Origin: Lentisphaerota bacterium
Lineage (GTDB): Bacteria; Verrucomicrobiota; Kiritimatiellia; UBA8416; JAIOPI01
Direction: 5' to 3'
NCBI GenBank assembly: GCA_021413965.1
Contig: JAIOPI010000015.1
Coordinates: forward strand, 124,001-188,000
Length of the DNA: 64,000 nucleotides
The translations under genes and the position numbers were made by a program. This document shows positions 7,220 through 12,171 of this stretch, in pieces. The notes under the pieces are model-generated. The model saw nothing but the letters and a program-made list of their open reading frames with translations, was not told where the DNA came from and did no database searches. Every line of letters begins with the position of its first letter. Position 1 is the stretch's first letter.

Positions 7220-10200
7220 TCAAGTCGAGGCCGCAGGGCGCGGCCCGTGCAGGCGGGCCAGGTTCTCCGCAAGCTCCCGGACCCAGGCGGGGTCAGGCAG
7301 CGCATAGGGGCGGAAGATCTCGGTGTAGCCGGCTTGCTCGTTGTATAGGACGGCCCGGTGCAGCCCCAGCCCGCCGGCGACAGGATTGTCAATCAGGCTC
7401 GCAGAGTCGCTGGCGCTCATCTGGAACAGCACCCGCATCGTGCACTCTGCCAGTCCCTTGCGGCCCAGGAACCGGTTCGCATTGCTGTACGTATCGCACG
7501 AAATCATGACGTGGCAGCCAAGGCCTCCGCCGTTGTGGATGAGTTGGTTCAGGTGGACGGCCGGATTCGCCGAGGCCTTGTCGTCTCCGAAGGAAAAATC
7601 CAGCCCGTCGCCGTAGCGCAGCTTGGGAAAGCGCTGGATGCCGTTGATGAGGACGAAGATGGCCGGCAGCTCATCGACGCGCTCCACGTCGTGGCGGCGC
7701 TCGATCTCCGCCGCCACGTCCGCCAGCGCCTCCGCCAACTGCGCCCCCCCGGGCAGATCCACGCGGTGCGGCAGCGCCCGCGCAACACGCTCCAGGAATT
7801 CACGCGACGGCGTTCCGGGCGGCGTCGCATCGAGCAGCAGAAACCGCGCCCGATTCACCCCGTGCTGGGCTGCCAGGGCCGCCAGAATCGCGGCAAACAG
7901 CGTGACCTGCGCCTCCTCCTGCTGCCCCACCACGAGCAGGTGGCTGCCATTCTGGCGCGGGAAGCTGATCTCCGTCGGCCCCTTGATCGAGTTTGGCGCC
8001 CCGATCCACGCGCGCGGCACGGCGACCGGCTGTGCCCGCTCGGCACTGAGCTGCGCCTCCAGCAACGGGTTGGCTCGCAGCATGGCCGGCGCGTTGCCCT
8101 CGAAGACCAGGGGGCCCGGCCGGGCGACCGGCTCACGATCCGCCAGGCGACGGACAGCCGCCAACCGCATTTCGCGCTCCTCGTCGGGCAGCCAGACGAC
8201 TTGGAACGGGCTGTTGCCCTCCAGCATGCCGGCGGCATCGTTGTAGATCGCCTCGCCCGGACGCGACAGCATCCGCGGGGCGGAGTTGCTGTCGTCCATG
8301 ATCAGAAAGGCATCGGCCTCGTTGCACTGCAGCGCGATGCGGACCACCATCTGGCCCAGCGTGCTGCGCGAAACGGTGTAGGCCCCGCCCAGCGTCTGTG
8401 ACCCGAGCAACACGTGAATGCCGAAGGCGCGCCCCTGCCGCACCAGCCGGTCCAACAGCAAGGCCGCCGCCTGGGAAACCGCGTCGTCCTCCACGAAAAA
8501 CTCCTGGAACTCATCCACGATGAGCAGTGTGCGCGGCAGCGGCTCGGCGCCCTCCACCCGGCGGTAAGCGGCAAATTGCTGGACGCCGGCCTGCCGGTAG
8601 CGCTCGCCGCGCTGGGTCAGTTCCTCATCCACGCGCTGCAGCACACTCAAGGCGAATTCGCGGTCGCTTTCGATCGACACCACGCGCGCATGCGGCGTGC
8701 GCTGGGTGGCGTAGCACTTGAACTCGACGCCCTTCTTGAAATCGATCAGGTAGAACTCCACCTCGCGCGGCGAACACCACAAGGCCAGGTTCGTGATCAG
8801 GACGTGCAGCAAGTTGGATTTGCCGGAGCCGGTCTTGCCCGCGATCAGCGCGTGCTGTCGCGTGCCCTCCCCCAGGGCGAAGTACTGCAGGCGGGTCGCT
8901 CCCGTCCGCCCGATGGGCACGCGCAGCACGTCATCCGTGCGCAGGCTCCAGTACTCGCTGTCCCGCGGGGCCACCCAGTTGAACCCGAGTTCGATGCGCG
9001 CGGCGTCGGCGCTGACGCGCCCGATCTGACGCAGCAAATCGACCGTGACCTCCGGCGGAGGCGGCGCGTCCAGCGTCAGCCGAAGGCCCGGCATGATCCC
9101 GCCGGCAATGTCAAAACCGTCGCCCTGGCATTTCAGGCAAAGGCTGTTGCGACGCAGTTCATCCAGCACGAATGACGACGGCAGCGCGCGGCGCGTATCC
9201 CAGTGAATCAACGTATACACACCGCACTTGGCGCCACTGGCGGCAATGCTCAGCAGGCGCCCCAGCGCAAGATCGCTGAAGCCCGCCGGAAAATCCGCGA
9301 TGACGAGGAACCGGTATTTTTCCGCCAGGTCGCCGGCCTTCTCGTTGTACTCCGCCAGCGTGCGATGCTCCGTGCGCAGGTACATCTGAATGACTTTCTC
9401 CATGTGCTCATTCAAATCGCCCAGGCGCTGCTCGATCTGGCGGTCCTGCGTCCAGATGCGGCCATTGACGAGTGACTTCTCGTGGTCCGCCAGATGCATG
9501 AAACCGGCAAAATTCTGACCGAGCTCAACGGGATCCAGCAGCGTGAAGGTGATGTTGCCGGGACGGGACGTCAGCAGCAGGCGGAAGATCAACGTGTTCA
9601 GCGTCGCCAGCGCCTGCTCGCGCCCCTTCCGCCCCGTTTCCAGCAACAGGGAGCCCGGCTGTGGAAACGTCACAGACAACGGGACGGAGAGGCGCAACCC
9701 CTCCGGCAACGCCAGGTGGGACTCCCTGCTCAAGGGCGGCGCGAAGGCCTCCAAGTCAACGTCCGCCTGGCCAAAGGTCACGGCCTGCGGAAAGGCCGAC
9801 GGGGGTACCCAGTTCGCCCAGTCCACCGACGTCCATTCAGGAAAATCAGTGGCCGCCGCAAGCTGGGCCGCCTGCAACGTCGCGGCCAGCGGGGCGACGC
9901 CCGCGGTCCACTCGGCGACCAGCCCTCGCCAGTTGGCGTCCCGTTCCGCGGCCAGGGCGGCCGCGGCCGCGGCGTGTGACTCTGCCATCTGGCGCCGACG
10001 GCGCTCCTCCTGCTCGACGCGCTCCCGCGCGGCCGCCATGCGACCGCGTTGGAAGCGCTCGCGGCGGCGCCGCTCGACCCCTTCCCACTTGCGCAGAACG
10101 GCCTCCAGCTTCGCACCCACTCGCTCTTCGGCCGACAGCCGCTGCTCCTCGGCCTCGAATTGCGTGGACTGCCAGGCCTCCTGCGTCGCCACCGATTCCT

Positions 10201-11140
10201 GTTCAAAGGCCGCCGCCAGTGCCGCCAGGCGCGCGTCATGCTCCGTCCGATTCAGCTCGACGCACGCATTGTGTAAATTGAAGACCCGGTCGACCGCGCT
10301 TGCCGTCGCGCCTGCCAGGGGCGCAACCCGGCGCTTCCCGGATACATAGAGGAGGATCAAGACGACCACCAGGATGACGGCCGTGATGCCTGTGGCGCCA
10401 TAGCCAGCCCGTCCCGCATGCAGCAGGAACAACACCCCCAAGGCTGCAAACGCGATTAACAGCACAAGCGTAACCGCCATGGGGAGGGGCAGAAACCGGA
10501 ACAGCCACGCCTGCGGCACGTGGCGAATCCGCCGCAGGCCCGCTTGCACCTCCTCGAGCCCCTGCCCCAGTTCCGTGAACTGCTGCTCAAACGTCGCGGC
10601 CCCGTCCACCTCGGGCGCGCCCGCCGGAGGCGCCTGCAACAGCTTGGCATAGCCCCCCGTCATCTGGCGCACCGCCTGCACCAGGTCCACGATCTCGCCA
10701 CGGCGCGCCTGCAGCGACCGCTGGGCATCGGCATAGGCTTGCTCCGCCGCCTGCCGGTCTTCGGGATAGGCGCGCTCGCGGTCCCGCATGTGCGTCTGCA
10801 GTTGGAACTTGCGGTTGCCCTCCGTCCGGTCCGCCTGCTCCAGCGCGCCGCGCAGGCACCCTTCCCGCGCCCGGGCAATCGCCGACCGACGACGCGCCAA
10901 GGAGGCTTCGAGCGCGGCCTCCGCCTCGCGCCACCCGGCTTCCGCCGCGTCCCGCTCCGTCGTCAACGTGGCTTCCAGCGTCTCCAGGTCCTGTTCGCGC
11001 GTGCGTCGCAACTGCCCGGCCCGCAGGCGCGCATCCTTCTCAAGCGCGGTTTCGCGGTTGCCGAACTCGCGCGCCAGCGTCCGCAGGCGCTGCAGCAGCG
11101 CAAGGACCTCGTCGATCCGCAGATGTTTACTCGCAGTCAT
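7220..11140 (-). CDS. FtsK/SpoIIIE-domain ATPase, membrane anchored, EccC/EssC-like
   Basis: Coiled-coil N-terminus, two TM segments (LPMAVTLVLLIAFAALGVLFLLHA; GITAVILVVVLILLYV), coiled coil, canonical FtsK domain (LIAGKTGSGKSNLLHVL ... LLIVDEFQEFF), second degenerate domain (LLVVGQQEEAQVTLFAAIL). Confidence 0.88.
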   Translation of the reverse strand: MTASKHLRIDEVLALLQRLRTLAREFGNRETALEKDARLRAGQLRRTREQDLETLEATLTTERDAAEAGWREAEAALEASLARRRSAIARAREGCLRGALEQADRTEGNRKFQLQTHMRDRERAYPEDRQAAEQAYADAQRSLQARRGEIVDLVQAVRQMTGGYAKLLQAPPAGAPEVDGAATFEQQFTELGQGLEEVQAGLRRIRHVPQAWLFRFLPLPMAVTLVLLIAFAALGVLFLLHAGRAGYGATGITAVILVVVLILLYVSGKRRVAPLAGATASAVDRVFNLHNACVELNRTEHDARLAALAAAFEQESVATQEAWQSTQFEAEEQRLSAEERVGAKLEAVLRKWEGVERRRRERFQRGRMAAARERVEQEERRRRQMAESHAAAAAALAAERDANWRGLVAEWTAGVAPLAATLQAAQLAAATDFPEWTSVDWANWVPPSAFPQAVTFGQADVDLEAFAPPLSRESHLALPEGLRLSVPLSVTFPQPGSLLLETGRKGREQALATLNTLIFRLLLTSRPGNITFTLLDPVELGQNFAGFMHLADHEKSLVNGRIWTQDRQIEQRLGDLNEHMEKVIQMYLRTEHRTLAEYNEKAGDLAEKYRFLVIADFPAGFSDLALGRLLSIAASGAKCGVYTLIHWDTRRALPSSFVLDELRRNSLCLKCQGDGFDIAGGIMPGLRLTLDAPPPPEVTVDLLRQIGRVSADAARIELGFNWVAPRDSEYWSLRTDDVLRVPIGRTGATRLQYFALGEGTRQHALIAGKTGSGKSNLLHVLITNLALWCSPREVEFYLIDFKKGVEFKCYATQRTPHARVVSIESDREFALSVLQRVDEELTQRGERYRQAGVQQFAAYRRVEGAEPLPRTLLIVDEFQEFFVEDDAVSQAAALLLDRLVRQGRAFGIHVLLGSQTLGGAYTVSRSTLGQMVVRIALQCNEADAFLIMDDSNSAPRMLSRPGEAIYNDAAGMLEGNSPFQVVWLPDEEREMRLAAVRRLADREPVARPGPLVFEGNAPAMLRANPLLEAQLSAERAQPVAVPRAWIGAPNSIKGPTEISFPRQNGSHLLVVGQQEEAQVTLFAAILAALAAQHGVNRARFLLLDATPPGTPSREFLERVARALPHRVDLPGGAQLAEALADVAAEIERRHDVERVDELPAIFVLINGIQRFPKLRYGDGLDFSFGDDKASANPAVHLNQLIHNGGGLGCHVMISCDTYSNANRFLGRKGLAECTMRVLFQMSASDSASLIDNPVAGGLGLHRAVLYNEQAGYTEIFRPYALPDPAWVRELAENLARLHGPRPAAST

Positions 11141-11893: not shown

Positions 11894-11898
11894 GGAGT

Positions 11899-12171
11899 TC
11901 AACGCTGGTCCAGGTACTCTTCAATACGCTGCGCCTTGCGCAGCAGATACGGGGCGTGACGATGGGACGCCTCAAGAAACCGTCGCATGACTTTCATGGT
12001 CTGCTCGAACTCCTCGGCAAACTTGGCATGCTCCTGGTCCTGCCACGTCTCGCCGAGGGCTTCGAACCGGGCCTGCAGCGCCGACATCCGATTCTGGACA
12101 TCGTCCGCGCAGGCGCGCAGCTCAGCCGCGAACTGCCGGACCTGCTCGGGATTGACAATTGCCTGTGCCAT
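11899..12171 (-). CDS. WXG100 family (type VII secretion target-like) protein, 90 aa
   Basis: MAQAIVNPEQVRQFAAELRACADDVQNRMSALQARFEALGETWQDQEHAKFAEEFEQTMKVMRRFLEASHRHAPYLLRKAQRIEEYLDQR: size, helix-turn-helix pattern and central W. Confidence 0.75.
   Translation of the reverse strand: MAQAIVNPEQVRQFAAELRACADDVQNRMSALQARFEALGETWQDQEHAKFAEEFEQTMKVMRRFLEASHRHAPYLLRKAQRIEEYLDQR

What the first reader, a model, noticed from the sequence alone, without database searches (positions are those of the whole stretch)
7220..12171. Compact WXG100 + tandem FtsK-like ATPase operon: candidate minimal type VII-like export system
Seen: four minus-strand genes packed with short or overlapping junctions (WXG100-like 11899-12171; helical protein 11336-11893/11902; 70-aa protein 11127-11339; 1306-aa FtsK-like ATPase 7220-11140). 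The ATPase has two TM segments, flanking coiled coils, one intact FtsK domain (GKTGSGKSN / LLIVDEFQ) and a degenerate second one; it has no C-terminal DNA-binding gamma domain. Established: WXG100 substrates plus an EccC/EssC FtsK-type ATPase are the shared core of actinobacterial and firmicute T7SS. Inference: a stripped-down T7SS-like exporter or envelope machine in a bacterium whose neighbouring genes (hldD/rfaE2) suggest a diderm, with no EccB/D/E, EssA/B or YukD homologue visible nearby.
Basis: partly seen in the sequence, partly recalled or inferred. Interest (0 to 1): 0.88.

Follow-up and report, generated by a model that had tools for sequence, protein, structure and literature searches.

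The report
Toxin-free type VII-like operon, Verrucomicrobiota
A compact four-gene cluster pairs a type VII secretion-type motor with small WXG100-type proteins; it is conserved as a unit across many Verrucomicrobiota, two-membraned bacteria in which I found no study of such a system, although the broader class was noted in a 2012 footnote.

Summary
Window 7220-12171 (-) encodes a WXG100 protein (Pfam PF06013, above cutoff), a 185-aa protein modelled as a long two-helix hairpin, a 70-aa protein that is probably a second WXG100-like protein (weak sequence evidence), and a 1306-aa ATPase. The ATPase has three FtsK-type domains, not two, and only the middle one is intact. Its nearest structural matches are EccC/EssC, and in a tree it groups with EccC apart from FtsK translocases. 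The four genes keep the same order in 69 of 72 loci with enough upstream sequence. ATPase, WXG100 and hairpin genes co-occur strictly: 19 of 19 ATPase-bearing genomes have them, 0 of 5 lacking genomes do. Nothing else is conserved within about 8 kb. No YukD or EssB gene was found in this genome. A Helicobacter plasmid relative carries a nuclease toxin and immunity gene in the slot where Verrucomicrobiota carry the toxin-free hairpin protein. The broader class is known by prediction (PMC3482391 footnote; PMC4978471; PMC11090510), so this is a new variant, not a new category. Best reading: a stand-alone T7SS-like exporter, with function inferred and not shown.

The parts
11899..12171 (-). wx: 90-aa WXG100-family protein (W-x-D turn), gene 1
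   Evidence: PF06013 50.8 bits; PDB relatives EsxB, HP0062, EsxA; about 70% identical homologues, nearly all 90 aa; N- and C-terminal 15 residues about 90% conserved
11336..11893 (-). hel: 185-aa long two-helix hairpin with a Pro/Ala-rich tail, gene 2; ORF also open from TTG 11902
   Evidence: AF2 pLDDT 90.3, helices 7-75 and 82-155; 85 orthologues with no extra domain
11127..11339 (-). sm: 70-aa protein with invariant W28-x-D30 and F36, probable second WXG100-like protein, gene 3
   Evidence: In 11,865 ORFs its profile hits only its own family and wx; WXG100 chains are among the best but non-significant profile matches in the PDB
7220..11140 (-). EccC/EssC-type ATPase, 1306 aa, gene 4: coiled coil, two hydrophobic segments (222-240, 248-266), coiled coil, three FtsK-type domains
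   Evidence: TIGR03924 112 bits, TIGR03925 101, TIGR03928 84, FtsK model 19.5; Foldseek EccC 5.4e-35
8135..8971 (-). intact middle ATPase domain, residues about 724-1002 (GKTGSGKS, LLIVDEFQEFF)
   Evidence: GKTGSGKS in 86 of 88 orthologues

Best explanation
A self-contained, single-copy type VII-like system. The EccC/EssC-type ATPase is anchored in the inner membrane by two segments and probably forms a hexamer. It recognises the WXG100 protein wx, probably paired with the second WXG-like protein sm, and moves it together with the long helical hairpin protein hel out of the cytoplasm. hel sits in the operon position that holds a toxin in a Helicobacter plasmid relative, so it is probably the substrate or a cargo carrier that has no toxin domain. 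Shown here: gene content, order, co-occurrence, the fold and kinship of the ATPase, WXG100 identity of wx, and the hairpin model of hel. Inferred: hexamer formation, the wx-sm pair, export itself, and the direction and route across the outer membrane.
For: EccC/EssC profiles far above FtsK; solved-structure relatives EccC, EccC5 and YukB by sequence; Foldseek ranks 1-8 all EccC/EssC at 5e-35 to 1e-16, FtsK first at 8e-14; tree clade with EccC and the WXG-linked plasmid ATPases, 99% UFBoot, apart from FtsK; PF06013 wx; invariant order 69/72; strict co-occurrence in 19 genomes and none in 5 that lack the ATPase; nothing else conserved in the flanks; Helicobacter plasmid order WXG100 - coiled coil/WHH nuclease - SUKH - 77 aa - FtsK.
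Against: No export data exist. YukD-like and EssB components are missing from the genome and no outer-membrane pore is linked. No YxxxD/E export motif was seen by inspection in the wx C-terminus. No further WXG100 substrates were found in the genomes searched. Kinship of hel with toxin-carrier domains is weak (2 of 7 tested).
Confidence: 0.6

Rival explanations
1. A conflict or defence module: a mobile T7SS-like cassette used against phages or competitors, here with its toxin lost or encoded elsewhere.
For: Relatives on plasmids sit with TerY-P kinase/phosphatase genes and a CARF protein, TerD, or a WHH nuclease plus SUKH immunity gene; a TerY-P version exists in a Verrucomicrobiota genome, L115; the CoCoNuT paper predicts defensive secretion.
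Against: No defence gene is conserved beside the four-gene operon in about 80 loci; no toxin domain on hel in 85 orthologues; the window copy lies among housekeeping genes.
Confidence: 0.17
2. An intracellular or envelope-organising machine that uses the EssC-type motor to remodel helical hairpin proteins at the inner membrane without secreting them.
For: The operon is coiled-coil-rich throughout; no extra substrates and no outer-membrane component; single copy with a strict partner set.
Against: From established knowledge of T7SS, EccC/EssC-type ATPases linked to WXG100 genes act as export motors in the systems studied experimentally.
Confidence: 0.17
3. A DNA translocase of FtsK, TcpA or HerA type, with the small proteins as accessory DNA-binding or regulatory factors.
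For: The middle domain is an FtsK-type motor.
Against: Tree and fold place it with EccC/EssC; no gamma domain reported; the genome has its own FtsK, L082; WXG100 linkage.
Confidence: 0.04

Closest known systems
Solo WXG / three-domain YueA-like ATPase, 'mobile versions of T7SS' (PMC3482391, Table 1 footnote 6)
   Same: WXG protein plus three HerA/FtsK domains with only the middle one active; verrucomicrobia are named there
   Different: Only a footnote in the text read; it gives no four-gene operon, no hel or sm protein, no membrane segments and no distribution
[quoted passage not shown]
   Same: Three ATPase domains with only the centre active, N-terminal coiled coil, two WXG100-type proteins, a coiled-coil protein in the operon
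   Different: There the coiled-coil protein carries a nuclease, the ATPase lacks membrane segments and the operon sits inside a defence locus; here membrane segments, no nuclease, stand-alone
Helicobacter WXG100/FtsK set (HP0062, HP0066; PMC4978471, PMC3397514; plasmid L121)
   Same: WXG100 with a WRD turn (HP0062), small protein and FtsK-type ATPase in a diderm
   Different: The Helicobacter plasmid has a WHH nuclease and SUKH immunity gene in position 2; its ATPase is 823 aa
T7SSb of Bacillota (EssC/YukB, EsxA, EssA, EssB, EsaA, YukD)
   Same: EssC-type ATPase and a WXG100 protein
   Different: No FHA domain reported by Pfam, no YukD or EssB homologue in the genome; one intact and two degenerate ATPase domains
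T7SSa of Actinomycetota (ESX; EccB-E)
   Same: EccC-type ATPase; a second small WXG-like partner resembles the EsxA/EsxB pairing
   Different: EccB not found (control did not ring); W-x-D turn, no YxxxD/E motif seen

Membership tests
WXG100 family (wx) | PF06013 above curated cutoff | tested here: met
   50.8 against 27.3 bits
WXG100 family (wx) | Literal W-x-G turn | tested here: not met
   W-Q-D in the window, W-x-D conserved in the family; HP0062 likewise has WRD (PMC3397514)
WXG100 family (sm) | Helical hairpin with W-x-G/D turn and profile match | tested here: inconclusive
   W-x-D and F invariant; wx proteins are the only other hits of the profile, best E 5e-4; Pfam WXG100 in 2 and WXG100_2 in 4 of 61 members, weakly; no structure model made
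EccC/EssC ATPase superfamily | Several FtsK-type domains, closer to EccC/EssC than to FtsK in sequence, fold and tree | tested here: met
EccC (TIGR03924) or EssC (TIGR03928) equivalogs | Score above the curated cutoff | tested here: not met
   112 against 509 bits; 84 against 778 bits
T7SSb | YukD/EsaB and EssB/YukC present | tested here: not met
   No match in the genome, which is 91.7% complete, with B. subtilis ringing as control
T7SSa | EccB present | tested here: inconclusive
   No match, but no control genome rang
Any T7SS | ATPase-dependent secretion of WXG100 proteins | not testable with these tools
   Needs experiment
Mobile WXG/FtsK T7SS-like class | WXG100 gene linked to a three-domain ATPase with only the middle domain intact | tested here: met
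   definition from PMC3482391 and PMC11090510
Mobile WXG/FtsK T7SS-like class | Coiled-coil protein carrying a nuclease or other toxin domain (as in CoCoNuT and Helicobacter versions) | tested here: not met
   No domain beyond the hairpin in 85 orthologues; no conserved extra gene

The most novel reading that the evidence does not exclude
A one-ATPase type VII translocon domesticated in a diderm phylum: it exports only its own WXG pair and the long hairpin protein, to build or service an envelope structure, and no longer delivers toxins.
Probability: 0.28. Interest if true: 0.8.

Novelty: new variant of a known kind. Interest (0 to 1): 0.55.

Why it matters
Type VII secretion is described in the T7SS literature read here as a system of Actinomycetota and Bacillota (e.g. 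PMC11217815). A four-gene version, conserved as a unit and present in about half of the sampled genomes of one Verrucomicrobiota order, could show what the minimal working core of an EccC/EssC machine is and whether it can work in a cell with an outer membrane. Isolates or named species carry it (L033 Verrucomicrobium sp. BvORR106, L043 Spartobacteria bacterium LR76; the wx protein is also listed for Limisphaera ngatamarikiensis), so the question can be tested at the bench.

Tried and rejected
Chance ORFs: rejected by conserved order and identity. DNA translocase: made unlikely by fold and tree. hel as a WXG100 protein: profile comparison with wx gave no convincing alignment and Foldseek gave no match under E 0.001, so it is called only a long hairpin. 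hel as kin of the toxin-carrier coiled coils: weak, 2 of 7 above all heptad shuffles. A larger operon: clustering of flanking ORFs found no fifth conserved gene; the further clusters were shadow ORFs of the operon or families in at most 8 loci. Extra WXG100 or hel copies as substrates elsewhere: none in 19 ATPase-bearing genomes except the second WXG100 of G214, which belongs to its TerY-P locus. Promoter and terminator scans: nothing. The 2012 Ter-system paper is not held. The viral fold library gave mostly FtsK-like and packaging ATPases, nothing near the EccC/EssC scores.

Full report
WHAT IS THERE. The four minus-strand ORFs are at the stated coordinates. The sequence shows 5 nt between wx (stop at 11899) and the likely hel start (ATG 11893), an ATGA overlap between hel and sm, and a 14-nt overlap between sm and the ATPase. 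wx is 90 aa and PF06013-positive (50.8 bits, cutoff 27.3). The upstream ATG at 12249 would give 116 aa, but nearly all listed homologues are 90 aa, so 12171 is the likely start. The surrounding 64 kb is chromosomal: rpoA, secY, glutamine synthetase, folate enzymes, a VF530 gene and a PMT-type glycosyltransferase. The genome has one other FtsK (L082) and one WXG100 gene. It belongs to Verrucomicrobiota: the homologues and sampled relatives are of that phylum.

THE ATPASE. NCBIfam models EccCa, EccCb and EssC match at 112, 101 and 84 bits; the FtsK model reaches 19.5. All are far below the curated cutoffs for being EccC or EssC proper. Solved relatives by sequence are T. curvata EccC (3e-35), EccC5 and YukB. 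An AlphaFold2 model of residues 440-1306 (pLDDT 88.6) has Foldseek hits 1-8 all EccC or EssC (5.4e-35 to 1.1e-16), then FtsK from 8e-14. There are three FtsK-type domains. The first (about 478-718) and third (about 1041-1288) lack intact Walker A motifs in the alignment; the middle one has GKTGSGKS and a DEFQEFF Walker B (GKTGSGKS in 86 of 88 orthologues). The middle domain is closest to the first ATPase domain of a Streptomyces EccC (92 bits; second domain 43, third 9). In a maximum-likelihood tree of this domain the Verrucomicrobiota sequences (94) and the WXG-linked plasmid ATPases join EccC in a 99% UFBoot clade, apart from housekeeping FtsK and other FtsK-type plasmid ATPases. Support inside that clade is poor (61 for Verrucomicrobiota plus mobile relatives), so the exact sister group is open. 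The window protein has hydrophobic segments at 222-240 and 248-266; two such segments pass a strict hydropathy cutoff in 68 of 88 orthologues and in none of the seven plasmid or TerY-P type relatives. Hydropathy alone is crude: the Streptomyces EccC also fails this cutoff.

THE SMALL PROTEINS. wx is most conserved in its first 15 and last 15 residues (about 0.9 mean identity) and at the W-x-D turn. The consensus is W-x-D and not W-x-G, and by inspection there is no YxxxD/E export motif. sm has invariant W28, D30 and F36. Its profile, run on 11,865 ORFs from all loci, hits only its own family and wx (best wx E 5e-4); wx aligns to it at the W-x-D...F stretch. Its best PDB profile matches include HP0062 and EsxA but are not significant. 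It is best called a probable second WXG100-like protein. hel is modelled as two antiparallel helices, 7-75 and 82-155, pLDDT 90, followed by a tail rich in Pro, Ala and Ser of at most 70 residues. It has no significant fold match.

CONSERVATION. Loci came from a scan for the ATPase motifs DEFQEFF and VEFYL[VI]DF, so they are biased to close orthologues, and most are metagenome-assembled. Among the loci of that scan plus the window with at least 1.5 kb upstream, 69 of 72 keep wx-hel-sm-ATPase on one strand. The exceptions L030, L038 and L072 lack wx, or wx and hel, nearby. In G391 wx lies on another contig, so linkage can be lost while the gene is kept. In 24 whole genomes, the 19 with the ATPase all have exactly one hel, and one WXG100 gene (two in G214, which also has a TerY-P type locus); the 5 without it have neither. 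Within about 8 kb on either side no other gene family is shared by more than 8 of the loci. Prevalence: 61 of 115 sampled genomes in the order of G066 (25 of 34 genera), 6 of 6 in the order of G087, 3 of 31 in the window's own order. This patchiness fits horizontal transfer or repeated loss; no reconciliation was done.

RELATIVES THAT EXPLAIN THE SLOT OF HEL. On a Helicobacter plasmid (L121) the order is WXG100, a 340-aa protein with a coiled-coil N-terminus and a WHH/colicin-DNase C-terminus, a SUKH-type immunity protein, a 77-aa protein, and the ATPase. On a Caballeronia plasmid (L120) it is a VWA protein, WXG100, 436 aa, 113 aa, 76 aa, ATPase, then CARF, VWA, PP2C and kinase genes. Two Rhodococcus plasmids and one Deinococcus plasmid carry rearranged versions. 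By position hel takes the place of the toxin. Sequence support for descent is weak: the hel profile beats all heptad shuffles for only 2 of 7 such proteins.

WHAT WAS KNOWN. A 2012 survey noted in a footnote that verrucomicrobia and other diderm lineages have solo WXG domains with a YueA-like ATPase of three domains, only the middle active, apparently mobile versions of T7SS (PMC3482391). A Helicobacter pan-genome paper calls WxG plus FtsK a minimal T7SS (PMC4978471). A 2024 paper describes a WXG100/EssC-like operon in CoCoNuT loci with two WXG100 proteins and a coiled-coil nuclease, without transmembrane domains (PMC11090510). HP0062 has been solved and noted as ESAT-6-like (PMC3397514). A full-text search for WXG100 and Verrucomicrobi found one unrelated paper, and a 2024 survey of T7SS variants does not mention this phylum; subscription papers and preprints were not searchable. 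NCBI and JGI already auto-name wx a WXG100 family type VII secretion target.

MECHANISM. The best-supported reading is a stand-alone T7SS-like export motor with its own small substrate set. The steps from kinship to export, and any outer-membrane step, are inference. Defence use and a non-secretory envelope role remain open; DNA translocation is unlikely.

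Noticed in passing
L121 (Helicobacter sp. NHP19-012 plasmid, locus 6746-11148): WXG100, coiled-coil/WHH nuclease, SUKH immunity gene, 77-aa protein and FtsK-type ATPase in one run: a candidate toxin-delivering version in a diderm.
   Followed up: partly
L115 (G214:C1:1718000-1734000): A Verrucomicrobiota genome holds a second, TerY-P-associated WXG100/FtsK locus with a 442-aa coiled-coil protein, besides the four-gene operon.
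   Followed up: partly
L116 (G195:C131:26000-42806): A divergent ATPase (1072 aa) with a WXG100-like match nearby in a genome of the window's own class.
   Followed up: no
L124 (Rhodococcus pseudokoreensis plasmid): An FtsK-type relative next to Hsp70, TPR and GrpE genes.
   Followed up: no
window 12325-12594 (-): A VF530 DNA-binding protein gene lies just upstream of the operon on the same strand.
   Followed up: no
window 22108-23121 (+): An IS200-like (Y1) transposase ORF.
   Followed up: no
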